From a virus, in IMG/VR virus record IMGVR_UViG_3300009285_001146, positions 1 to 30,384 of that record: DNA of 30,384 nt. One strand, 5' to 3'. Made by a program: the position numbers and the translations under genes. This document shows, piece after piece, positions 129 through 24,344 of the stretch. The notes under the pieces are model-generated. The model searched no databases and was not told the DNA's origin. It saw only the letters and a list, made by a program, of their open reading frames with translations. How positions within the stretch are numbered: the first letter of the stretch is position 1; the number at the start of each line of letters is the position of its first letter.

Positions 129-530
129 CTAGAAAAGGAGGATATACGCATACACCAGAGTCTTTTTTAAGATCAATAGATCATTTGTCTTATCAATACC
201 TTGAGTTTTAACCAGTTTTTTTGAGTAATTAAGAGCTTCAAGATAAGACATATCTGAATTATTGACAGGACGTGAAATCCATTCCGCTATCTGTTCTGCA
301 ACTGCGAGCTCTTTAGAATTAAGGTCTACTTTTTCGACCTGTTCAATTGGTGCAATCCATGAGTAATTTGTCGATAAAACCTTATCTTTAAATTTGACAA
401 TCTTCTTGCCATCTTCTGTTGCGGCAACTAACGCTTGTGCTTGTGCGGCGGTTAAGTAAAACCTCTGATTGTATCCGTATGCAACTACATGTTCAGACGT
501 TTGTAGCGTCATAGACTTTTGATTTTCCAT
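129..530 (-). CDS. Hypothetical protein, last gene of the leftward early operon
   Basis: An unrecognised soluble protein of about 133 residues starting MENQKSM. An in-frame ATG at 557 would give nine more residues but overlap the upstream gene by 65 nt, so 530 is preferred; neither start has a clear ribosome site. The N-terminal half contains YGYNQRFYLTAAQAQALVAA followed by DGKKIVKFKDKVLS, a pattern of short beta strands. The C-terminal half is helical. It is the distal gene of the leftward operon, downstream of the replication protein. It may be a small accessory replication or host-takeover factor, but nothing in the sequence proves that. Confidence 0.6.
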   Translation of the reverse strand: MENQKSMTLQTSEHVVAYGYNQRFYLTAAQAQALVAATEDGKKIVKFKDKVLSTNYSWIAPIEQVEKVDLNSKELAVAEQIAEWISRPVNNSDMSYLEALNYSKKLVKTQGIDKTNDLLILKKTLVYAYILLF

Positions 531-1455
531 GATGTTCTTGTTTAATTTGTAATGCATCTTTTTTTACCCAGTTAGATAGAGCGGCCTTGTAATTTTTGTA
601 AGTTTTTCCTTTAGCTTCCATCCAGTTTTTCATATCATCGAGTTTGCTTAAAACAAAACTTATAGGTACTTGGTACTTGTCTGCAATTTCTTGTAGGTCA
701 ATTTCTTTGATATTTTTTAGGGAAGTGTGCATACTCTCTCTTAACTTATCTTTACTTAACTTAACTTTACTTAACTTAACTTCATGTTCCAAATTGTTTC
801 CATTTTGTTTCCATTTTGTTTCCATTGTTGGAATGGGTAGTAATTCCATACCTGCTTCTTCCGGAGTTCTTTGTCCTTTTTTTGAATTACATTTTTGACA
901 GGCTAGGACTAAATTGTCATCATTTGTCTCGCCGCCTAATTTTTTTGGGATGATGTGTTCTAATACAAAATGAGCTGTTTTATTTGGAAATTCAATACCG
1001 CAATATCTACATCCTTTATCTCTTTTGGTGATTCTAATACGGACTGGCAAATTTGCAGTTACATCCTCACTATCGGTTACACCATCTAAAACATCATTTA
1101 TACTTACGTTACATTTCGGGCATTCTGGAAGCATTGAAGGAGAAATTCTATCTGTTTTTTGCTTTTGAAATTCATCCCAATTATTTAAATGGCAATAAAT
1201 ATTATTATCAACTGTATAAATATGAACGTGTTTCATTATGTTGGTTATTTCTTGTAAATGTTTTTTGATCTCATTAAGAGCAATGTCGTCATACATGAAA
1301 ACAGTTGACCGTAAGTAGCTATCATTGGCTCTAATCCTTCCTTCATCATCGGCATTAGAAAATAAACCAATGAACAAAACTTTTGCTCGAGGACTTAACT
1401 TCCCAAAATTTTCATCCTCCCAAATTGTCGGATCTATCATTCTTTTGCGTGCCAT
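493..1455 (-). CDS. Phage replisome-organiser-like replication protein with embedded HNH domain
   Basis: The N-terminus (about residues 1-100, beginning MARKRMIDPTIWEDENFG, with LSPRAKVLFIGLFSNADDEG) matches the winged-helix start of phage replication-initiation proteins. The middle (about 145-200) is an HNH module: CRYC, then LEHIIPKKLGG, NLVLACQKCN and a trailing lysine. A second CPKC pair lies near residue 112. The C-terminus (about 245-320) resembles a DnaD/DnaB_2-type helical domain ending in a YKNYKAALSNWV-like motif. A TTG 18 nt upstream (1473) is better spaced from GAGGG and may be the real start. The role is probably origin recognition and helicase loading. The HNH may be a zinc-binding structural insert or an active nuclease. 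A VKLSK repeat separates the HNH from the C-terminal domain. Confidence 0.8.
   Translation of the reverse strand: MARKRMIDPTIWEDENFGKLSPRAKVLFIGLFSNADDEGRIRANDSYLRSTVFMYDDIALNEIKKHLQEITNIMKHVHIYTVDNNIYCHLNNWDEFQKQKTDRISPSMLPECPKCNVSINDVLDGVTDSEDVTANLPVRIRITKRDKGCRYCGIEFPNKTAHFVLEHIIPKKLGGETNDDNLVLACQKCNSKKGQRTPEEAGMELLPIPTMETKWKQNGNNLEHEVKLSKVKLSKDKLRESMHTSLKNIKEIDLQEIADKYQVPISFVLSKLDDMKNWMEAKGKTYKNYKAALSNWVKKDALQIKQEHHGKSKVYDATNV
740..782 (-). repeat. 15-nt tandem repeat inside the replication gene, candidate origin
   Basis: Two perfect copies of CTTTACTTAACTTAA (plus strand, 750-764 and 765-779) are flanked by partial copies (740-749 and 780-782). They encode VKLSK-VKLSK-DKLR. Phage origins often lie as iterons inside the initiator gene (lambda O is the classic case), and this AT-rich in-gene array fits that pattern. 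Slippage in a lysine-rich linker is the alternative. Confidence 0.45.
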
Positions 1456-1499
1456 AATAAAAATAACTGTCAAGATAATCGCCCTCGTGTCTACCCTTA

Positions 1500-3063: not shown

Positions 3064-3290
3064 GGTTTTTTGTCTCCTTTCTTGTAGTTGTTGTTGAGCA
3101 TGTTATATAGACCAGTTCGTGTGAGTTGACCTTCAAGCTGGGGAATGCGAGTAGAGTTTATAATCTCAAGAAGTTTTGGCATCTTGAAATATTTAGAAAG
3201 GATCTTTATATATTTAGTATCGATGTAGGTTCGATAAGGGTAGAGAGACTCTTTTTGTACTTCAAGAAACTCTGTGTTATAATCTGACAT
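3060..3290 (-). CDS. Small hypothetical protein, first gene of the leftward operon
   Basis: A 76-residue protein, first in the leftward operon and overlapping the next gene by 4 nt. It contains YPYRTYIDTKYIKILSKYFK followed by MPKLLEIINSTRIPQLEGQL and a helical end (TRTGLYNMLNNNY). The IPQLEGQLTRTGLYNML stretch may be a small helix-turn-helix, which would suit a promoter-proximal regulator, but I do not recognise the family. A structured leader of about 110 nt precedes it. Confidence 0.6.
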   Translation of the reverse strand: MSDYNTEFLEVQKESLYPYRTYIDTKYIKILSKYFKMPKLLEIINSTRIPQLEGQLTRTGLYNMLNNNYKKGDKKP

Positions 3291-4913: not shown

Positions 4914-5375
4914 ATGAAGATTCCTACAAGCTATATTGATGATATTTCAAATATCATTATTGATGTAATAAGGAAGGGCAATAAGATAATGGTTTGTGGT
5001 AATGGGGGATCTTCTTCGCAAAGTTCTCATTTCGTTGCCGAAATGATCGGAAAGTTTAAATATATAAGGCGGGCATTACCTTTCTTGGCGTTGACGACAG
5101 ATACTTCAATTTTAACTTCTATCGGAAATGATATAGGGTTTGAGTATGTATTTTCCCGTCAGGTTGAAGGACTTGGTGCTCGCGGTGATCTGCTTATTGT
5201 TTTGTCAACTTCAGGTCAATCTAAAAATTGTCTAGAGGCAATAAAATCTGCACAAAAAAAAGGGATATTTTATGAAGAGCTAATACGAATCGGAAAAGAT
5301 ACTTCAGAGATTCAGGAAAATCATCTTAAGATGATCCATTTAATTTGTGCTCGCGTTGAGGAGGTTTTTATATGA
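4914..5375 (+). CDS. gmhA: Sedoheptulose-7-phosphate isomerase, GmhA-like (SIS domain)
   Basis: The SIS fold is clear: GNKIMVCGNGGSSSQSSHF, VAEMIGKF, the LTTDTSILTSIGNDIGFEYV motif typical of GmhA, LLIVLSTSGQSKN, and a C-terminal helix with IQENHLKMIHLICARVEE. GmhA turns sedoheptulose 7-phosphate into D-glycero-D-manno-heptose 7-phosphate, the first step of nucleotide-heptose synthesis. At 153 residues it is short for the family (about 190). The N-terminal helix is reduced. The strand region between the EAIKSAQKKG helix and the C-terminal helix is cut from about 26 to about 11 residues. It overlaps the kinase gene by 4 nt. Activity is likely but not certain, because of the shortening. Confidence 0.85.
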   Translation: MKIPTSYIDDISNIIIDVIRKGNKIMVCGNGGSSSQSSHFVAEMIGKFKYIRRALPFLALTTDTSILTSIGNDIGFEYVFSRQVEGLGARGDLLIVLSTSGQSKNCLEAIKSAQKKGIFYEELIRIGKDTSEIQENHLKMIHLICARVEEVFI

Positions 5376-6292
5376 TCTATAAAGCAGAAAGTCCGGTTAG
5401 GATTTCTTTATTTGGCGGATCGACTGATTTTCTATCTTATTCAAATAAATTTGGAGGATTAGTTGTTAATACATCAATTGATTATTACCAGAAGATTAGG
5501 TTATTCACAGGTAATGATAGGACAGCTTTGGAAAATACAAATATGTGGCTACTTGATGATGATAATGAGGAGTTATTTAAAAAGCTATATGAAGTTTATA
5601 ACATAAGGGCAAGCGATGTTAAACTTGAGCATGAATGTGAGGTAAATATAAGATCGGGTTTAGGTTCTTCGGCTGCTTTAATTGTAGCATTTATTAAAGC
5701 TTTATCAAAGCTAAGACATGACCCTGAGAGAAATTCTTTCGATATAGCAAAAGAAGCTTGGAAATTTGAAGTCAACGAGATGGGAATACTTGGCGGTATT
5801 CAGGATCAGCTTGCATCTGCATGGGAGGGTATGAATATATTTGAGATGTCAAAGCGTGGAATTTACAGGATACCAGTAACTAACGGAGTAAGACAGAAAA
5901 TATTAAATTCAATTATTTTAATTTATACGGGGATAAGTAAAAAAAGCTCAACGACACAAAACCATTTCCGTCATCTTGAATCTTCTGAGATTGAGTACCT
6001 GCATAAAATTAAAAAAATAGCTGAAACTGCGGTTAACATTATAGAGTATGGTGACATTGAAAAGCTTGGGTATTTACTTCATGAATCATGGGAATTAAAG
6101 AGTAAATTTAACAAAGTCAGTAATAGTAAAATTGACCGTATATACGCGAGAGTTAAGAAGCTTGGAGTATATGGCGGTAAGCTTTGCGGTTCGGGTGGCG
6201 GGGGGTATATGTTTTTTATGGTGCCGCCTCATAAAAAAGCAGATATTATAGAAAAAATTGAGAATAAATATCAAGTTTTAGAAAATTTATGA
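5372..6292 (+). CDS. hddA: GHMP-family sugar kinase, D-glycero-D-manno-heptose 7-phosphate kinase-like (HddA)
   Basis: All three GHMP motifs are present: PVRISLFGGSTDF near residue 8, the ATP loop NIRSGLGSSAALIV near residue 90, and KLCGSGGGGYMFFM near residue 270. The opening FGGSTDFLSYSNKFGG and the segment MGILGGIQDQLASAWEG match heptose kinases of the HddA type better than galactokinase or mevalonate kinase. HddA phosphorylates heptose 7-phosphate at C1 to the 1,7-bisphosphate. Length (306 residues) is close to the family norm. It sits between isomerase and nucleotidyltransferase with ATGA overlaps on both sides, which supports a coordinated pathway. Confidence 0.85.
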   Translation: MIYKAESPVRISLFGGSTDFLSYSNKFGGLVVNTSIDYYQKIRLFTGNDRTALENTNMWLLDDDNEELFKKLYEVYNIRASDVKLEHECEVNIRSGLGSSAALIVAFIKALSKLRHDPERNSFDIAKEAWKFEVNEMGILGGIQDQLASAWEGMNIFEMSKRGIYRIPVTNGVRQKILNSIILIYTGISKKSSTTQNHFRHLESSEIEYLHKIKKIAETAVNIIEYGDIEKLGYLLHESWELKSKFNKVSNSKIDRIYARVKKLGVYGGKLCGSGGGGYMFFMVPPHKKADIIEKIENKYQVLENL

Positions 6293-6522
6293 AAAAAATA
6301 TTGGATAATTATTATTATTTTATGTATAGATGGACTATTATGCACCCTCTACATTTTTTATTTTATCGTGATGGTCATAAATTTCTATATACAAATCATC
6401 CGAAATTAGATCGTATTTGTTTTTTAATATTGCAATTTATTCATTCATTAGTTGCTGGAAAACCAGTTTATCATATTAAACTGTTATTTCTCAAAGTATT
6501 CAAAAAAAATTTATATATATGA
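6289..6522 (+). CDS. Small aromatic, basic hypothetical protein in the heptose cassette
   Basis: A 77-residue protein rich in Y, F, H and K (MKKILDNYYYFMYRWTIMHP), with a moderately hydrophobic stretch (ICFLILQFIHSLVAG) that could be membrane-associated. It overlaps the kinase and the nucleotidyltransferase by 4 nt each, so it is translated as part of the set. It is more AT-rich than the virion genes. No family recognised. A membrane-recruiting partner for the sugar enzymes is possible but speculative. Confidence 0.55.
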   Translation: MKKILDNYYYFMYRWTIMHPLHFLFYRDGHKFLYTNHPKLDRICFLILQFIHSLVAGKPVYHIKLLFLKVFKKNLYI

Positions 6523-7058
6523 TTACTGCGGTAATACTTGCAGGGGGCTATGGCACACGGCTTAAAAAATTAACAAAGACAATTCCAAAGCCGATGATCG
6601 TAATTGCAGGGAAGCCTGTTATCAGACATATTATAGACAATTTACATATTGCGGGGATTAATCAAATTATAGTTAAGACCCATTATTTACCCGAAGTTAT
6701 CATGAAATATCTAGGTAACTCGGTCATGTATTATTATGAATCTGAACTTTTATCGCATAAAGAGACAATTATTGCGTTACAAGGACAAATAAATGATAAC
6801 TTTTTTGTTATTAATGGTGATACTTTGTCAAATGTTGATTACAGGAAAATGTTAAAAACTCATAAAGAAAATACAATTACTGTACTTATGGATGAGTGGA
6901 GATGTGCGGGTACATGGCTTTATAGTCGGCAATATTTTAAAGATCAATCTATTGCCGTTTATCCATATCGACAAACAGGTTTACTTTGGTTTGATATTGG
7001 AACACCTGAGAGGTTACAGGCGGCTAAAGATTATTATGAAAGATATGAAAAAAACTAA
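6519..7058 (+). CDS. hddC: Sugar nucleotidyltransferase, HddC/RmlA-like
   Basis: The nucleotidyltransferase fold begins with the NTP-binding signature VILAGGYGTRLKKLTKTIPK, followed by PVIRHIIDNL, the metal-binding FVINGDTLSNVD, and the C-terminal FDIGTPERLQAAKDYYERY typical of mannose-1-phosphate/heptose-1-phosphate guanylyltransferases. With GmhA- and HddA-like neighbours, the best reading is transfer of a nucleotide to heptose 1-phosphate, giving GDP-heptose (ADP-heptose is less likely because the kinase/transferase fusion HldE is absent). At 179 residues it is shorter than usual (about 230); sequence between the NGDT strand and the C-terminal motif seems reduced. Confidence 0.8.
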   Translation: MITAVILAGGYGTRLKKLTKTIPKPMIVIAGKPVIRHIIDNLHIAGINQIIVKTHYLPEVIMKYLGNSVMYYYESELLSHKETIIALQGQINDNFFVINGDTLSNVDYRKMLKTHKENTITVLMDEWRCAGTWLYSRQYFKDQSIAVYPYRQTGLLWFDIGTPERLQAAKDYYERYEKN

Positions 7059-12271: not shown

Positions 12272-12724
12272 TTAAATTTTATTTCTTTTTGGATTAAATC
12301 CATGAGGAAAATGAATCTTATTATGTTGAGCGTTACTTATTATTTTCATATTTTCATACCTATTGTCATCTTTAATACCATTTATATGATGTATATGTTC
12401 TTTCGGTTTAAGATAACGACCAATATGTTGTTCCATTATGTAACGATGTTCAAGAATGTATCCATTTGTACTTGCATAAGGATGTTCCGGTATATAGATT
12501 CTTATGTAGCCAAATTTTGTTATATTTCTTCCTCCTCTCCAATTAGGATGATTCGATCTAAATCCCATCAATCCTTTTGTTCCTTTATTCCAAGGTGTTT
12601 TTCCGACATCACTAGTCTTAATTCCAATTTTTCCCTTATTCCAAGGAGGATGAGTAGAAGCTCTAATTTTTTTCATTGTTTTAGATATTTTTTGTCTACG
12701 ATTTTTTTCAGAAGCAGTCAACAT
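12272..12724 (-). CDS. HNH homing endonuclease with NUMOD3-type repeats
   Basis: A 150-residue protein from ATG 12724 (a GTG at 12748 would add eight residues and overlap the next gene). The N-terminal half has NUMOD3-like DNA-binding repeats (TASEKNRRQKISKTMKKIRA, PPWNKGKIG, TPWNKGTKG). The C-terminal half is HNH: NPNWRGG-like NHPNWRGGR, YILEHRYIMEQHIGR, then HIHHINGIKDDNRYENM and NAQHNKIH, with the histidine pair and the downstream asparagine and histidine in place. It is the only minus-strand gene in a 25-kb run of plus-strand genes and lies exactly between two ORFs, as a free-standing mobile endonuclease would. Confidence 0.88.
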   Translation of the reverse strand: MLTASEKNRRQKISKTMKKIRASTHPPWNKGKIGIKTSDVGKTPWNKGTKGLMGFRSNHPNWRGGRNITKFGYIRIYIPEHPYASTNGYILEHRYIMEQHIGRYLKPKEHIHHINGIKDDNRYENMKIISNAQHNKIHFPHGFNPKRNKI

Positions 12725-12741
12725 AGTTCCAATTATAACAT

Positions 12742-14001
12742 ATGACACAAGACGCGATACAAGACCAGAATACCGTACATGCCCTTCTTATTCATTCGGG
12801 AACAGCAGGGACAGCAGAAACCATACGGGCAACAGGGCAGGCAAATGGTGCCCAGAATATCCATGTAACTGGGGGAACAGTAGTATCAAGTGCCAGTCTT
12901 GAATTAAACTCAGGAACAATAACAACCATTCAAAATGGTACTCAACAAACTTTAGGAACAGTTGGAGTATTAAACGCCGGCTCTGTGGTTGTAACGAATG
13001 GTACAGTTGTTGCAAGTGCTGGTAGCATTGTTCAGACGGCAGGTACTCTAACGACAGGGTCACTTACTGATGTTGCGACACTTGGCACTATTTTAAATCT
13101 AAACAAAGGAACAATTACCCGTATTGAAGGTGGATCAGTTGTCGTGACCATAGGTACAGTGAATGTAAATACAGGAACAATCGTACAAGCATCAGGTACT
13201 TTAACTACCGGATCACTTACTAATCTTGCAACAGTAGGAACAATTCTTAATGTAGATAAAGGGACAATTACACGGGTAGAGGGTGGATCGATGGTGCAAA
13301 CTGCAGGGACAGTAACACTTCTTGAGGCAGGGACGGTAACTGCTATTAATAATATAGTGAAAGGAACAATCACTCGGGTTGAAGGCGGATCAGTAGTTGT
13401 GACTATAGGAACCGTAAATGTAACAACTGGGTCAATAGTGCAGACTGCAGGTACCATGACAACAGGTTCTCTTACAAATGTAGCAACTCTTGGCACCATA
13501 TTAAATGTAGATAAAGGGACTATAACAAGCGTTCAGGCAGGGACAATCAGTAATCTCGCCTCAGGATCGGTTGTCGTGACTCTGGGTACAGCAATCGTAA
13601 GTACAGGAACCCTTGCTGCGCTAGCTGCAGGGACAATTACTGCAGGGACTGTACGTCAGCAATGGCAACCGGTTAATCAGGTGACTTCATTTGGAACACG
13701 TGCTACTGCTGCAGGGTCGGCATTTGGGACTATATCTGCTGCATCAGGCGCAGGGACAAAACATATCGTATCTGGAATATCAATCGTTGTTGAATCGGGA
13801 ACTACCGATGTTCGGGTATTATACGGAACAGAAATTATCGGAGGATCGGTGCTTGCTGCCGGTAAATTTGTACCATCTGCCGGAATAGCCCGTGATTTTA
13901 GTCCTTCTGTAGAGTCGGGAGCAAATAGCGAAATAACCTATCATTTTGTTGGTGCTGGGACAGCATATATAACAGTCCAGTACTGGAAAAGCTTATTATA
14001 A
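12742..14001 (+). CDS. Repetitive Thr/Gly/Val virion protein, fibre or decoration type
   Basis: A 419-residue protein dominated by short T-G-T and G-S-V-V-V repeats up to about residue 305. A 51-residue repeat is visible: TLTTGSLTDVATLGTILNLN starts at residue 102 and recurs at 153 and 238, with GTITRIEGGSVVVTIGTVNV and variants inside; the middle copy carries extra 11- and 23-residue units. Regular beta-strand/turn spacing predicts a beta-solenoid or trimeric fibre shaft. The last 120 residues differ (VSGISIVVESGTTDVRVLYG, ending AYITVQYW) and look like a folded beta domain. No signal peptide. Position among virion genes supports a surface fibre or head decoration. Confidence 0.7.
   Translation: MTQDAIQDQNTVHALLIHSGTAGTAETIRATGQANGAQNIHVTGGTVVSSASLELNSGTITTIQNGTQQTLGTVGVLNAGSVVVTNGTVVASAGSIVQTAGTLTTGSLTDVATLGTILNLNKGTITRIEGGSVVVTIGTVNVNTGTIVQASGTLTTGSLTNLATVGTILNVDKGTITRVEGGSMVQTAGTVTLLEAGTVTAINNIVKGTITRVEGGSVVVTIGTVNVTTGSIVQTAGTMTTGSLTNVATLGTILNVDKGTITSVQAGTISNLASGSVVVTLGTAIVSTGTLAALAAGTITAGTVRQQWQPVNQVTSFGTRATAAGSAFGTISAASGAGTKHIVSGISIVVESGTTDVRVLYGTEIIGGSVLAAGKFVPSAGIARDFSPSVESGANSEITYHFVGAGTAYITVQYWKSLL
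13045..13605 (+). repeat. In-frame repeats (153-nt unit) inside the fibre-like gene
   Basis: Unit 1 covers 13045-13197 (51 codons). Unit 2 starts at 13198 and is expanded to 85 codons. Unit 3 starts at 13453 and fades near 13605. Copies agree better in protein than in DNA, since many differences are synonymous, so the repeat is old and kept by selection. Confidence 0.7.
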
Positions 14002-18956: not shown

Positions 18957-19247
18957 ATGAAAATAACACCTACTCGTGGAAACTGCTTAATAGAACTTAT
19001 TGAAACTCAAGAAACATCTGCTTCAGGTCTTATAATTCCTGATGAAGTCAAGTCGCGACAAGCTAAAGGGAAAGTTATAGAAATAGGTTCCCCAGAATAT
19101 TTAGGTGATGGTGTATATGATCTAAAATCACTGGTTGATAAAGGTGATATTGTCTGGTTTAAACAGTTCGCAGGTGAACCGATACGTGAAGAAGGCAAAA
19201 AATATCTCATAGTCCCTTACAAAGAAATACTGGCCGTGATTAAATAA
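18957..19247 (+). CDS. groES: Co-chaperonin GroES
   Basis: A 96-residue full-length GroES: MKITPTRGNCLIELIETQET at the start, mobile loop around TSASGLIIPDEVKSRQAKGK, VIEIGSPEYL, the GDIVWFKQFAGEPI strand pair and the terminal YLIVPYKEILAVIK. GroES caps GroEL rings to form the folding cage. The mobile-loop hydrophobic tripeptide (LII) that contacts GroEL is present. The start has no Shine-Dalgarno sequence; it follows a U6 run, and the predicted 5' leader is only about 20-25 nt. Located 30 nt upstream of groEL. Confidence 0.93.
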   Translation: MKITPTRGNCLIELIETQETSASGLIIPDEVKSRQAKGKVIEIGSPEYLGDGVYDLKSLVDKGDIVWFKQFAGEPIREEGKKYLIVPYKEILAVIK

Positions 19248-19251
19248 TGAC

Positions 19252-19280
19252 CATAGAGTACCATAATGACGTGCTCTATG
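19252..19280 (+). promoter_or_regulatory. Hairpin that includes the groEL start codon
   Basis: CATAGAG (19252-19258) is the exact reverse complement of CTCTATG (19274-19280), whose last three bases are the groEL ATG. The 15-nt loop also contains an in-frame upstream ATG (19266). Such a stem would make groEL translation depend on unfolding, for instance by ribosomes finishing groES. Confidence 0.5.
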
Positions 19281-20834
19281 AAAAAAGCCAAAGATATAAT
19301 CTTTGATGCTAAGGTACGGGAAAAATTACTTCGTGGCATTTCAATTACAGCGCAGGCCGTGGCTTCAACTCTTGGGCCACGAGGCCGTAATGTTGCCATA
19401 AATAATCCATTTTCAACTCCCGAGGTCTATCACGATGGAGTAACTGTAGCCCGTCAAATCAATCTAAAAGATCCATTCGAGGATATGGGGGCAGAACTTC
19501 TTAAGTCTGCAGCAATTAAAACGAATGAACGGGCGGGTGATGGTACAACTACGGCAACAATACTTGCTGAGGCTATAATTACTCAAGCTTTTAAGATGAT
19601 CGGAGAGGGTGTAAACCCAATGGTACTTAAAGGTCAAATTGAGAGCGAGATGAAAATAGTCCTTGAAGAACTTAAAAAACTTACTAAAAATATAGAGACA
19701 AACGAGGAAATTGAACAGATAGCAACAATTTCTTCAACTGATCCCGTTATAGGTCGGATGGTAAGTCAAGCTATTAAGACTGTCGGCAAACATGGAACAA
19801 TTACAGTTGATAACGGTCGGGAAGTAAATACAAAGGTAATTTATAAAGAAGGATTTGAATTTGACCGTGGATATATCTCTCCTTACTTTGTAACGGACAA
19901 AGATACAGTTGAAGCAGTAGTAGATGATCCATACATCTTGATAACTGACAGGTCTATCCGATATGGCTATGAGATCGTGCCTTTCTTAGACCGCTTTATA
20001 AAGGAAACTAAATCAAAAAACCTAGTCATTATAGCGGGCGAGGTCTCAGATGAGGCGCTTGCTACCCTAGTTGTCAATAAACTTAAAGGTCTTATAAATG
20101 TAGTCGCGGTAACTGCTCCAGCATACGGAGGACGGCGTATTGATGAGATTGAGGATATAGCGGTGTTTACTGGTGGGCAAGTAATTATTGCAGATAGCGG
20201 AACTGACATTCAGGGAGTTCAAATTGAACAATTGGGACGGGCTGAAGCAGTAAAGGTAGACCGTGATAAAACCATAATATTTGGGGGAAAAGGAAATAAG
20301 GAAGCTATTTCCTCATATACCAATAACTTAAAGGAACAAATAAAAATATCAAATACTGATTTTGACCGAGATATTAAGTCAAATAGACTTGCAACATTAT
20401 CGGGTAAAGTAGCAATTATCGAGGTAGGTGCGCATTCTGAGGTTGAGATGAAAGAGAAAAAAGAACGTATTCTGGACGCCGTACATGCTACACAGGCCGC
20501 GATAGATGAAGGCATTGTAGCTGGGGGCGAGATAACACTATTAAGACTTGCAACTAAGGTGAAAGGAATACTTAATCAAGCATTCAAAGCTCCATTTAAG
20601 CGCCTCATGGAAAATGCAGGTTATGACTATACTGACAAAATGATTGAACTATCGGGGAAAGATTACCCCTATGGCATTGACATGCTTGACGGGAAAGTTA
20701 AGGATATGATAGCAAGCGGAATTATTGATCCAGCTAGAGTCACAAGATCAGCTATAGAAAATGCCGTATCAATAGCAGGAATGATTGTATCAACAAATGT
20801 CATGATTACAGATATTGAAGAAGAAAAGATATGA
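19278..20834 (+). CDS. groEL: Chaperonin GroEL
   Basis: A 518-residue GroEL with all landmarks: STLGPRGRNVAINN, HDGVTVARQI (D53), AGDGTTTATILAEAI (D88), apical RGYISPYFVTDKDTVEA, NVVAVTAPAYGGRRIDEIED, hinge and ATP residues in ILDAVHATQAAIDEGIVAGG, and IIDPARVTRSAIENAVSIAG near the end. ATPase aspartates are conserved. One glycine of the usual AGGG triplet is glutamate, and the C-terminal GGM tail is absent; it ends DIEEEKI. ATG 19278 gives the standard MKKAKDI start. It overlaps the next gene by 4 nt. It would fold phage virion proteins with the adjacent GroES. Confidence 0.95.
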   Translation: MKKAKDIIFDAKVREKLLRGISITAQAVASTLGPRGRNVAINNPFSTPEVYHDGVTVARQINLKDPFEDMGAELLKSAAIKTNERAGDGTTTATILAEAIITQAFKMIGEGVNPMVLKGQIESEMKIVLEELKKLTKNIETNEEIEQIATISSTDPVIGRMVSQAIKTVGKHGTITVDNGREVNTKVIYKEGFEFDRGYISPYFVTDKDTVEAVVDDPYILITDRSIRYGYEIVPFLDRFIKETKSKNLVIIAGEVSDEALATLVVNKLKGLINVVAVTAPAYGGRRIDEIEDIAVFTGGQVIIADSGTDIQGVQIEQLGRAEAVKVDRDKTIIFGGKGNKEAISSYTNNLKEQIKISNTDFDRDIKSNRLATLSGKVAIIEVGAHSEVEMKEKKERILDAVHATQAAIDEGIVAGGEITLLRLATKVKGILNQAFKAPFKRLMENAGYDYTDKMIELSGKDYPYGIDMLDGKVKDMIASGIIDPARVTRSAIENAVSIAGMIVSTNVMITDIEEEKI

Positions 20835-21679: not shown

Positions 21680-22444
21680 ATGGGAAAAACACTTTTTTTT
21701 ACAACTGCCTTTAATCCTCAAAACATTGAGCTTGCCCGCAATATGGTTAACTCCTTCCATAAGTTTCACCCAAATACTGAGGTAAAAGTATTTACACAAG
21801 AAGACCTACCTAATTTTCTGCCCGTGCCGGGTTACGAGTGGAACTTTAGGATTACACCACTCTTTGCCGTACGGCTTCTACAAGAGTATGATACTGTAGT
21901 ACGATTGGACACGGATCAGATCATAACAGGTAATCTCGATCATATATTAGAGGGAGATTATGATGTTGCGGTAGTTCAAAACTCAAATCCGAGGGATTAC
22001 ATGCTTCACTACAGAAAGACGGGACAGATGTTGACTGCGGTAGATATACCTTATCTTGATTATGTAAACTGTGGATTTGTTGTCATAAAAAATCTGAAGT
22101 TTGCACAACACTGGTTTGGACTTTGTAACTCTAAATACTTTCCATTCTTCCAGTTTCGGGAACAGGATTTTTTAAATATCTTAATTCATTACTTTCCTTA
22201 TAAGACTAAATTTTTAGATAAATCAAATAAATGGCACGGGCTGATAAGTAAGGGATTTTGGCCACAGATAGAGCTAAAAGACGATAAATTAATATTGCCT
22301 AAAAATGATGAATGGCCGAAAGACGAATCAAAGGAAATTGTTTGTCTTCATGTAGCAGGTGGTGGTAGTGTCTCAAAATTTCATGACTTGAATATTAGAT
22401 TTAAGCCCGAAGTGATTAATCATTTAAAAGGACTTATTAAATGA
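21680..22444 (+). CDS. GT8-like glycosyltransferase (GT-A fold)
   Basis: A 254-residue glycosyltransferase. It opens with TLFFTTAFNPQNIELARNMV (nucleotide-binding first strand), has the metal-binding DxD in VVRLDTDQIITGNLDHIL (D77, D79), VNCGFVVIKNLKFAQHW and a C-terminal HVAGGGSVSKFHD, the H-x-G-type metal ligand of GT8 enzymes. It probably transfers a sugar from a nucleotide donor; acceptor unknown. It is followed by an HNH gene whose start overlaps its stop (ATGA). With the paralogue and the GT-B enzyme downstream it forms a glycosylation block. Confidence 0.75.
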   Translation: MGKTLFFTTAFNPQNIELARNMVNSFHKFHPNTEVKVFTQEDLPNFLPVPGYEWNFRITPLFAVRLLQEYDTVVRLDTDQIITGNLDHILEGDYDVAVVQNSNPRDYMLHYRKTGQMLTAVDIPYLDYVNCGFVVIKNLKFAQHWFGLCNSKYFPFFQFREQDFLNILIHYFPYKTKFLDKSNKWHGLISKGFWPQIELKDDKLILPKNDEWPKDESKEIVCLHVAGGGSVSKFHDLNIRFKPEVINHLKGLIK

Positions 22445-23091
22445 AAAAGAATTGGCACCATAGTGAAGAGTCTCGTAAAAAAATGAGTATGACTAGAAAG
22501 GGTAAGCCTCATCCATGGTTAAAAGGAAAGTCTTTGTCTGAAGAACATAAAAGAAAAATAAGTGAAGCTCATAAAGGAAAAATACCATGGAATAAAGACC
22601 TAAAGACAGGACACGCACCATGGAAAGGTAAAAAAAGACCCGATCTTTTAAAAACTAATGCAGTAAAGACAATGTTTAAAATAGGTTTATCTCCATGGAA
22701 TAAAGGTTTAAAAAACCCAATACTTATTTCTGAGAAATCTAGGGAGGTTTCAAGAAAAAGATGGTTAGGTGAAAATAATCCTAGATGGAGAGGTGGTGTT
22801 TATCCAGAACATTTAAGATTAAGATGGTCACTCCAGCATAAAGAATGGTCAAAAATGATTAAAAAGAGGGATAACTATACCTGTATACTATGTGGTAAAG
22901 TTGGCGGTAAATTACACGCTGACCATATAAAGCCTTTCGCTTTGTATCCTACAGAAAGATTTGAATTAAATAATGGTCAGACTTTATGTATAGAATGTCA
23001 TAAATTGAAAACACAATATGAAAATAAAATTTATTGGTCAAATCAATACGGCCAATCTAACGAAAGGGGAGTGATGCCACATGAGGTCTAA
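22441..23091 (+). CDS. HNH homing endonuclease with NUMOD3 repeats
   Basis: A 216-residue endonuclease. NUMOD3-like repeats fill the first half: HHSEESRKKMSMTRKGKPHP, LSEEHKRKISEAHKGKIPWN, then APWKGKKRP and SPWNKGLKNP. The C-terminal HNH has NPRWRGGVYPEH, YTCILCGKVGGKLHADHIKP and NNGQTLCIECHKLKT, with paired CxxC and the active-site D-H. It sits between the GT8 gene and a glycosyltransferase gene that lacks its first codons. It belongs to the same broad class as the protein at 12272-12724 but is clearly diverged, so the two were acquired separately. Confidence 0.88.
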   Translation: MKKNWHHSEESRKKMSMTRKGKPHPWLKGKSLSEEHKRKISEAHKGKIPWNKDLKTGHAPWKGKKRPDLLKTNAVKTMFKIGLSPWNKGLKNPILISEKSREVSRKRWLGENNPRWRGGVYPEHLRLRWSLQHKEWSKMIKKRDNYTCILCGKVGGKLHADHIKPFALYPTERFELNNGQTLCIECHKLKTQYENKIYWSNQYGQSNERGVMPHEV

Positions 23092-23163
23092 TAAAGACCG
23101 CCGCTTGAGAACAATCTGGAGCTCGAACGGCTATTGGTAGCCCTGCGGGGCACCAATATTTTT
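23085..23163 (+). ncRNA. Three consecutive hairpins after the HNH gene, unknown structured RNA
   Basis: GGTCT-AATAA-AGACC (23085-23099, containing the HNH stop), then GCCG...CGGC (23100-23131) with an inner TTGAG/CTC-AA pairing, then TTGGT-A-GCCC-TGCG-GGGC-ACCAA (23134-23156) followed by TATTTTT. The last could be a terminator. The cluster is GC-richer than its surroundings and lies exactly where the glycosyltransferase coding frame is interrupted, which suggests the 3' end of an intron or other inserted element. I could not find a group I or group II core. Confidence 0.4.
23134..23163 (+). terminator. Terminator-like hairpin ahead of the interrupted glycosyltransferase
   Basis: A nine-pair stem (TTGGT/ACCAA plus GCCC/GGGC, one bulged A) with tetraloop TGCG and a T-rich tail (23157-23163). 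It is the most GC-rich hairpin in the window. Confidence 0.5.
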
Positions 23164-23315
23164 AAAGAACAAGATCAGGATACGCTAATGAACAACTTTA
23201 TCTACTTGATAGATTAGATAAAGACGGTTGGCCTATAGCTCAAATTGCCTTCTGGGGACTTGAAGGACAGCCTATACATACAAAAGAGCATCCTAATATC
23301 AAGGTCTATCCTAAA
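23164..23315 (+). other. 5' coding remnant of the GT-B glycosyltransferase, without start codon
   Basis: In the frame of the gene starting at 23316, the sequence is open from 23166 and reads RTRSGYANEQLYLLDRLDKD, then GWPIAQIAFWGLEGQ and IKVYPK. SGYANEQ and FWGLEGQ match the N-terminal nucleotide-fold segment of GT4 enzymes. No ATG, GTG or TTG starts this frame, and a TAA (23163-23165) closes it upstream. About 12-15 codons (the first beta strand and start) are missing, so the gene is interrupted or truncated here. Confidence 0.7.
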
Positions 23316-24344
23316 ATGGCAGACGGCTTTGGTTCAGACGCTCTAGTACATCAAGCCCGTGACTTTAAGGCTGACGCCGTCCTCACCATGCACGACATCT
23401 GGACTATAAATCCAACATTCTTACCACAGATCAAAAACTTCATTCCTTATGTACCAATTGATAAAGAGCCTGTACCCTTGTCTATTCTTGAAAGACTCGA
23501 ATATGCTTATAAGATAATTACCTTTTCCCGCTTTGGACAAAAGGCATTGGAGCGTGCAGGATTTGCCTCGACTTTGATAGTTGAGGGGATAGACGTAAAC
23601 CTGTTTACACAGATGGATAAAATGGCTGTAAGACGCGAACTGGGATTACCGCAAAACGCATTCATATTCGGGATGATTGCGGCAAATAAAGAAAATCCGC
23701 CGAGGAAAGGTTGGCAGGAGGCTCTCGAGGCTTTTGCCCTATTTTATAAGAATCATCCTGAAGCTATGTTATTTTTAAGAATCCAACAGCAGACACCTTC
23801 TGGGTTTCCCATTTTAGGGTATGCCCGCTATCTTGATATTGCACACAGGCTTATATTTGTTGAAGAATATGAGGCGGTGTATGGATCGGATATAACAAAA
23901 ATAGTAAAGGAAATGAATGCTATTGATGTACTGCTTCATCCCTCACAAACTGAAGGGTTTGGGCTGACAGTAGTTGAGGCACAAGCCTGTGGTACTCCTG
24001 TACTTGTCAACGACTGTACGTCGATGCCTGAACTTATAATTGACGGTGTTACAGGTGAGAAAAGTAGGGTTGCAAGTCGTAGATTTTCAAATGATTTAGG
24101 ATATGTATATGTAGCAAATCCAAACTCTATAGCCGAGAAAATGGAAATACTTTATAAACGTATTAAAGAGGACAAAGAGGGTAAGATTGCCAAGGCGTGT
24201 AGGGAAAATATTGTTAAAAATTATAACATTGATACAATATTCAAAGAGCAATGGGTAAAATTTTATGAAACTTTACAAGATGAATTGTTGCCTATTGTTG
24301 ACACTCAAAAAAAAAGTGATACTATAAAAACTGTAGTAGGATGA
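23316..24344 (+). CDS. GT4-type (GT-B) glycosyltransferase, 5'-truncated
   Basis: From ATG 23316 this is 342 residues. The donor domain is complete: FIFGMIAANKENPPRKGWQE, LIFVEEYEAVYG, VLLHPSQTEGFGLTVVEAQA and CGTPVLVNDCTSMPE contain the E-x7-E signature of GT4 retaining glycosyltransferases. The acceptor domain lacks its first part, though clear homologous coding continues upstream to 23166 without a start codon. An enzyme made from 23316 would lack the first Rossmann strands and probably be inactive. Splicing, translational bypass or loss of function are the options. The late promoter for the tail module lies in its last codons. Confidence 0.8.
   Translation: MADGFGSDALVHQARDFKADAVLTMHDIWTINPTFLPQIKNFIPYVPIDKEPVPLSILERLEYAYKIITFSRFGQKALERAGFASTLIVEGIDVNLFTQMDKMAVRRELGLPQNAFIFGMIAANKENPPRKGWQEALEAFALFYKNHPEAMLFLRIQQQTPSGFPILGYARYLDIAHRLIFVEEYEAVYGSDITKIVKEMNAIDVLLHPSQTEGFGLTVVEAQACGTPVLVNDCTSMPELIIDGVTGEKSRVASRRFSNDLGYVYVANPNSIAEKMEILYKRIKEDKEGKIAKACRENIVKNYNIDTIFKEQWVKFYETLQDELLPIVDTQKKSDTIKTVVG
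24298..24325 (+). promoter_or_regulatory. Late promoter 3 (tail module)
   Basis: TTGACA (24298-24303) with TACTAT (24320-24325) after 16 bp; the spacer holds a run of nine A. It lies inside the 3' end of the glycosyltransferase gene and precedes the third structured leader. Confidence 0.55.

What the first reader, a model, noticed from the sequence alone, without database searches (positions are those of the whole stretch)
22441..23316. HNH endonuclease and a structured RNA interrupt a glycosyltransferase gene
Homologous GT-B coding resumes at 23166 in frame with the gene, right after a three-hairpin block, yet the first 12-15 codons and a start are absent. The HNH start codon occupies the ATGA junction where the glycosyltransferase start would be expected. 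Possibilities: a reduced or novel self-splicing element carrying HNH; a mobile insertion that created a translational bypass (as mobE did in T4 gene 60); or gene inactivation by homing. The interruption falls at the conserved SGYA nucleotide-fold loop, the kind of site that homing elements choose.
Basis: partly seen in the sequence, partly recalled or inferred. Interest (0 to 1): 0.75.

Follow-up and report, generated by a model that had tools for sequence, protein, structure and literature searches.

The report
HNH cassette with stop-codon insert downstream
A phage carries a DNA-cutting homing gene just upstream of a sugar-transferase gene whose conserved loop is broken by a 31-base hairpin containing a stop codon, closely resembling the famous T4 case in which ribosomes skip such an insert, and related phages show other short inserts at the very same spot.

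Summary
The HNH gene does not interrupt the glycosyltransferase (GT-B); it sits between two glycosyltransferase genes. The GT-B start is not missing: it is at 23081, in another frame, overlapping the HNH end (MRSNKDRRLRTIWSSNGYW, then TAG). Coding resumes at 23169 (TRSGYA). Only 31 nt (23138-23168), with a stop codon and most of a stable hairpin, interrupt the gene, at the conserved SN-xPW-xx-SGY loop. No group I or II intron was found in the window.

Among 168 GT-B loci (125 clusters), gross frame breaks occur only at this loop: window (+31), L134 (+5), L161 (+5), L211 (+5), L219 (+7). L332, found separately, has +5; L002 has a true group I intron there. Broken genes mostly carry an HNH gene directly upstream (4 of 9 HNH-adjacent clusters broken versus 1 of 116 others, p=6e-5), although the HNH genes belong to different families. 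L211 shows a sharp recombination break exactly at the insert.

Best reading: a free-standing homing cassette in which the insert destroys the homing site, as in T4 mobA/gene 60. Ribosomal bypass would rescue GT-B. This is plausible (stop after the last codon, hairpins in the right places, intact downstream frame) but unproven; take-off and landing codons match poorly in the window.

The parts
21680..22444 (+). Upstream glycosyltransferase gene (GT8-like); its stop overlaps the HNH start (ATGA)
   Evidence: Pfam PF01501 weak match, below cut-off; same order in L163 and L168
22441..23091 (+). HNH homing-endonuclease gene (NUMOD3 repeats + HNH domain), free-standing
   Evidence: relatives L010-L081; no Rfam intron in the 40 loci checked
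23066..23078 (+). GGGGAGTGATGCC: motif before the GT-B start, shared with interrupted, mostly HNH-adjacent GT-B genes (L161, L211, L219, L241, L332; GGTGACGCC in L217)
   Evidence: conserved although the HNH reading frame over it differs
23081..23140 (+). GT-B first part: start codon and 19 codons (...RTIWSSNGYW) ending in TAG at 23138-23140
   Evidence: sequence; homologous N-termini; codon choice among the rarest 0.3% of 19-codon stretches of this phage
23085..23099 (+). Hairpin 1 GGUCU-AAUAA-AGACC, candidate 5' stem-loop
23100..23131 (+). Hairpin 2 GCCGcUUGAG...CUCGAaCGGC, candidate 5' stem-loop directly before the next hairpin
   Evidence: 23081-23137 z -3.4 versus -1.8 to +1.6 in 18 intact relatives
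23132..23158 (+). Hairpin 3 UAUUGGU-a-GCCC...GGGGCACCAAUA; its 5' arm holds the last sense codons and the stop, candidate take-off stem-loop
   Evidence: z -3.3
23138..23168 (+). 31-nt insert TAGCCCTGCGGGGCACCAATATTTTTAAAGA interrupting GT-B at the SN-xx-SGY loop (net +1 frame)
   Evidence: alignment with contiguous relatives
23169..24344 (+). GT-B remainder (TRSGYA... to stop), open, catalytic motifs kept; in-frame stop TAA at 23163-23165 just before it

Best explanation
A free-standing HNH homing cassette of the T4 mobA/gene 60 type. The HNH enzyme would cut intact GT-B genes at the codons of the conserved SN-xPW-xx-SGY loop. Repair from the donor would copy the HNH gene, the first 19 GT-B codons and the insert into the recipient. 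The 31-nt insert splits the homing site, so the carrier is not cut. GT-B product is then most likely made, at least in part, by ribosomes that leave the mRNA at the TAT-TGG|TAG hairpin and resume about 31 nt downstream at ACA-AGA-TCA. Shown: gene order, insert borders within the ambiguity of alignment, recurrence of inserts at this loop, association with HNH genes, a recombination break at the insert in L211. Inferred: that the HNH cuts here, that the insert gives immunity, and that bypass occurs (I put bypass itself at about 0.35-0.4).
For: All gross frame breaks among 168 GT-B loci lie at this loop (L161), with different inserts: 31, 5, 5, 5 and 7 nt, plus 5 nt in L332 and in-frame 6 nt in L241. 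A group I intron sits at the same loop in L002. HNH genes of unlike families lie directly upstream of WIN, L134, L161, L211, L241, L332; 4/9 HNH-adjacent clusters broken versus 1/116, p 6e-5. In L211 versus L205 identity jumps from 27/39 before the insert to 115/120 after it (p 3e-5), while its N-terminal part is 36/39 like L210: a tract ending at the insert. In the window the N-terminal tract has foreign-looking codons and GC. Bypass-like features: stop codon right after the last sense codon, hairpin over that codon, upstream stem-loops in coding sequence (z -3.4; 18 intact relatives none below -1.84), downstream ORF intact. Six broken genes (2,776 codons) have no downstream stop, although 2.9 would be expected per 0.01 unconstrained substitutions per site. 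The L219 branch shows no relaxed constraint. T4 precedent: PMC5009743 and PMC11194080.
Against: Take-off and landing codons do not match well in the window: TGG to AGA has one base in common; TAT to TAA two of three. No 3' stem-loop stands out (z about -1.5). The first part has only 19 codons, too short for a T4-like nascent-peptide signal. L211's branch has relatively more amino-acid changes than L205's (p 0.02). L219 has an insert but no HNH upstream; L163, L217, L223 and probably L090 have an HNH upstream but an intact loop. The window sequence is one contig, and no nuclease target was tested.
Confidence: 0.57

Rival explanations
1. Homing cassette with an inactivating scar: the insert protects against the HNH but GT-B is simply lost, as it is dispensable for the phage; the 19-codon peptide and perhaps a truncated protein from ATG 23316 are the only products.
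For: Frame-breaking sizes (5, 7, 31) predominate over in-frame (6) with no visible preference for frame; codon match poor in the window; L211 branch looks relaxed.
Against: No stops or gross frameshifts downstream in any of six broken genes and L219 constraint equal to its intact sister require all events to be very recent.
Confidence: 0.3
2. The 31 nt is a regulatory hairpin such as an intrinsic terminator or attenuator (GC-rich stem then AUAUUUUU) that landed in the gene by chance, unrelated to the HNH.
For: Stem followed by ATATTTTT; second most stable 30-base hairpin of the window.
Against: The same loop is hit in other phages by unlike inserts; HNH association p 6e-5; the terminator scan does not list it.
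Confidence: 0.06
3. Remnant or unusual self-splicing intron (group I, with the HNH as its ORF).
For: A true group I intron occupies the same loop in L002, and the T4 insert has been suggested to be a degenerate group I intron (PMC5009743).
Against: No Rfam match at any threshold; N-terminal coding is continuous to the insert; 31 nt is too short for a ribozyme core.
Confidence: 0.03
4. Sequencing or assembly error in this contig.
For: Single contig; no near-identical relative to compare.
Against: A 27-nt near-perfect hairpin is not a typical short-read error; parallel cases recur in independent contigs, L134/L136 and L211/L213 each seen in two assemblies.
Confidence: 0.04

Closest known systems
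Phage T4 mobA - gene 60 cassette (50-nt bypassed gap)
   Same: Free-standing HNH gene upstream, short non-coding insert in the neighbouring gene, stop codon directly after the last sense codon, hairpin over the take-off region, stem-loop before it, out-of-frame resumption (precedent in PMC5009743, PMC11194080)
   Different: Host gene is a glycosyltransferase; insert 31 nt; 19 instead of 46 codons before the gap; no matched GGA-GGA pair; no experimental bypass or protection data here
Free-standing (intronless-homing) HNH endonucleases of T-even phages (mob genes)
   Same: HNH domain, start overlapping the upstream stop (UAAUGA for T4 mobE, PMC2988022), cassette between genes
   Different: NUMOD3-type protein; target not tested
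Group I intron at the same GT-B loop (L002, Rfam RF00028)
   Same: Same loop, same host gene family
   Different: True ribozyme of roughly 220-230 nt, no ORF; the window has none
Mitochondrial byp elements of Magnusiomyces
   Same: Short inserts in coding genes that ribosomes skip; incomplete take-off/landing match allowed (PMC5009743)
   Different: Yeast mitochondria, 81 copies; not tied to an endonuclease as far as I know
Collaborative homing (free-standing endonuclease and ORF-less group I intron on one site; PMC3984707)
   Same: Endonucleases and introns converge on one conserved codon stretch
   Different: Here intron and HNH were seen in different phages, and short inserts take the intron's place

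Membership tests
T4-type homing endonuclease + bypass cassette | HNH gene adjacent to the interrupted gene | tested here: met
   22441-23091 overlaps the GT-B start region
T4-type homing endonuclease + bypass cassette | Short insert absent from relatives, with in-frame stop after the last sense codon | tested here: met
   31 nt with TAG at 23138; relatives contiguous
T4-type homing endonuclease + bypass cassette | Stem-loops before and over the take-off codon | tested here: met
[quoted passage not shown]
   TGG/AGA one base, TAT/TAA two of three; GGC/GGA matches in two bases but would drop six loop residues (read)
T4-type homing endonuclease + bypass cassette | Stem-loop after the landing site | tested here: not met
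   z about -1.5; in T4 it assists landing, so its absence weakens but does not settle the claim
T4-type homing endonuclease + bypass cassette | Fusion protein made by bypass; insert protects from cleavage | not testable with these tools
   needs reporter and cleavage assay
Free-standing HNH homing endonuclease | HNH domain with DNA-binding modules, outside an intron | tested here: met
   PF07460 and PF01844 above cut-offs; no intron
Free-standing HNH homing endonuclease | Biased inheritance with co-conversion to the cut site | tested here: inconclusive
   Sequence footprint seen in L211, not testable for the window itself
Group I intron | Conserved ribozyme core (P3-P8, P7) | tested here: not met

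The most novel reading that the evidence does not exclude
A whole class of phage homing cassettes in one gene family uses short frame-breaking inserts (5, 7, 31 nt) as portable immunity tags, each skipped by the ribosome: a T4-like bypass over 31 nt in the window, and +5 'stop-hops' between matched codons in L161 and L211 (ACC-UG-ACC) and a +5 hop between synonymous codons in L332 (AGU-UU-AGC).
Probability: 0.25. Interest if true: 0.9.

Novelty: new variant of a known kind. Interest (0 to 1): 0.7.

Why it matters
T4 gene 60 has stood almost alone as a natural phage bypass tied to a homing endonuclease. Here is a second, independent-looking candidate with the same layout, in a gene family where the same codons are hit by several unlike endonucleases, a group I intron and several short inserts. 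It gives ready test constructs for how ribosome skipping arises, and a natural comparison of how selfish endonucleases make their carriers immune.

Tried and rejected
Trans-splicing or a distant 5' exon was considered while the N-terminus seemed absent; a six-frame search for SNAP-like peptides found nothing convincing, and the exon then turned up at 23081. I first read the hairpins as the P9 helices of a group I intron by analogy with L002; rejected once two of them proved to be coding. I thought HNH genes in L014, L023 and L049 had removed the starts of their neighbours; in L014 and L023 the true starts overlap the HNH ends, and L049 was left unresolved. The exact 24-mer of the hairpin region has no match in viral contigs, and 22900-23300 has none in phage or plasmid records beyond short HNH or chance matches. 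A pattern scan for the 5-nt insert found only L161 and L211/L213 among GT-B genes. A genome-contig search for the GT-B found nothing. The hop GGC to GGA, which deletes six residues, was rejected because the loop length is fixed in relatives.

Full report
What is there. The window is a 30,384-base virus record. At 21680-24344 it carries a GT8-like gene, an HNH gene and a GT-B gene. The HNH ORF 22441-23091 starts on the ATGA stop/start overlap with the GT8-like gene, and has NUMOD3 and HNH domains. They are not. From 23081, overlapping the HNH end, ATGAGGTCTAATAAAGACCGCCGCTTGAGAACAATCTGGAGCTCGAACGGCTATTGG encodes MRSNKDRRLRTIWSSNGYW, followed by TAG (23138-23140). Relatives read MGKKCTETLKDRRMRILWSSNGPHTNSGYG (L163) and MKEKRDLRLFWSSNGVHTNSGYG (L082). 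In the window TRSGYA resumes at 23169. The interruption is therefore 31 nt (23138-23168), net +1 in frame. Borders slide by alignment: SSNGYW|TRSGYA and SSNGY|RTRSGYA are both possible without creating a stop.

Synteny. In L168 the GT8-like and GT-B genes overlap directly, with no HNH. In L163 a different HNH gene occupies the same ATGA junction and its end overlaps an intact GT-B start. So HNH presence at this junction and the 31-nt insert are separable, and the HNH does not split the gene.

RNA structure. The three hairpins are real: 23081-23175 folds at -35.3 kcal/mol, z -4.6; among 505 windows of equal size none is as stable and only 1% have as low a z. Hairpins 1 and 2 lie within the 19-codon first part; hairpin 3 covers TAT-TGG-TAG. 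The first part alone has z -3.4, whereas the same stretch in 18 intact relatives ranges from -1.8 to +1.6. Its codons are in the lowest 0.3% for this phage and its GC is 0.49 against 0.39 in the rest of the gene. This fits either a foreign tract or selection for structure. No Rfam family of this kind matches.

A hot spot. I collected 168 GT-B loci, the window included (125 clusters at 97%). Translated searches with full-length references showed gross frame breaks only around residue 16-20, the SN-xPW-xx-(S/T)GY loop. The cases: window +31; L134/L136 TCC[TGACT]ACG GGC; L161 GGT ACC[TGACC]GGC; L211/L213 CCC ACC[TGACC]GGC; L219 CCT ACC[TGAAGCT]GGG. L332, from a pattern scan, has AGT[TTAGC]GGC. 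L241 carries an in-frame +6, ACC TTAGCC GGG. L002 has a genuine group I intron (RF00028, 62.2 bits), apparently splitting the tryptophan codon of the same loop. My break test would miss small frameshifts that BLAST bridges, so 'only here' means no gross break elsewhere.

Link to HNH genes. HNH genes lie directly upstream of GT-B in the window, L134 and L161 (opposite strand), L211, L241 and L332, and belong to different families: NUMOD3-HNH, HNH with a CxCGC motif, HNH-AP2, HNH_3 with a zinc-binding loop of homing endonucleases. By cluster, 4 of 9 HNH-adjacent genes are broken against 1 of 116 others (Fisher p 6e-5; L241 counted as intact, L332 not counted, and L090 added by eye to the adjacent, intact group). 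The loci were gathered by similarity to interrupted genes, so the p-value is a guide. A motif GGTGATGC (window GGGGAGTGATGCC) precedes the GT-B start in the window, L161, L211, L219, L241 and L332, and was not found directly before the start of the other genes; it appears as GGTGACGCC in L217, which has an HNH and an intact loop. It is kept although HNH frames over it differ. I read it as the shared ribosome-binding end of the cassette, without proof.

Footprint of movement. L211's closest relative L205 matches it at 27/39 positions before the insert and 115/120 after it (p 3e-5), while L210 matches the first part 36/39 but the second 92/120. A recombination tract thus ends at the insert, as expected if the cut lies there. 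For L219 the contrast is milder.

Is GT-B still made? In favour: no stop after the insert in any of six broken genes (2,776 codons), against 2.9 stops expected per 0.01 unconstrained substitutions per site; the L219 branch has the same synonymous/non-synonymous ratio as its intact sister (63/30 versus 46/20). Against: the L211 branch looks relaxed (30/35 versus 45/22, p 0.02), and the insert sizes show no preference for frame. For the window no close relative allows the test.

Mechanism. T4 gene 60 uses a GGA take-off codon before UAG, a take-off stem-loop, a 5' stem-loop, a nascent peptide, a matched GGA landing codon and a 3' stem-loop (PMC11194080, PMC5009743). Its 50-nt insert lies in a gene next to a homing endonuclease and may protect against it (PMC5009743). 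The window has the stop codon, the take-off-type stem-loop and upstream stem-loops. It lacks a good codon match (TGG/AGA; TAT/TAA two of three), a clear 3' stem-loop and room for a long nascent peptide. In L161 and L211 the +5 inserts give ACC-UG-ACC, the layout of synthetic 'stop-hops' mentioned in PMC5009743; L332 has AGU-UU-AGC. These matches could also reflect how small duplications arise. I therefore hold the homing-cassette part with fair confidence and bypass at about 0.35-0.4.

Name correction: the endonuclease at T4 60.1/39 is MobA; MobE lies at nrdA/nrdB (PMC2988022).

Noticed in passing
L002:3347-3580: ORF-less group I intron of roughly 220-230 nt in a phage GT-B gene, apparently splitting the tryptophan codon of the conserved loop, with a possible second RNA (int-alpA-like, below cut-off) just upstream at 3183-3257.
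   Followed up: partly
L332 (reverse strand), L297/L241, L217, L223: HNH genes of unlike families (AP2, HNH_3, CxCGC type) repeatedly sit at the 5' junction of the same GT-B gene, several sharing a GGTGATGCC-like ribosome-binding motif.
   Followed up: partly
window 4914-5375: SIS-domain (GmhA-like) isomerase seems about 20-35 residues shorter than the usual GmhA in its C-terminal part (length comparison from memory); no hairpin insert was seen there by eye.
   Followed up: partly
window 4914-7058: A small sugar-nucleotide set (SIS isomerase, GHMP kinase, nucleotidyltransferase) in a phage that also has several glycosyltransferases: likely heptose-type sugar activation.
   Followed up: no
window 18957-20834: Phage-borne GroES-like and GroEL-like genes; the close relative L163 also has a GroEL-like gene in the same place.
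   Followed up: no
window 12272-12748 and 493-1473, minus strand: Two more HNH-domain proteins, one between structural genes and one apparently within a longer replication-like protein; L163 and L168 also carry several HNH genes near GT-B.
   Followed up: no
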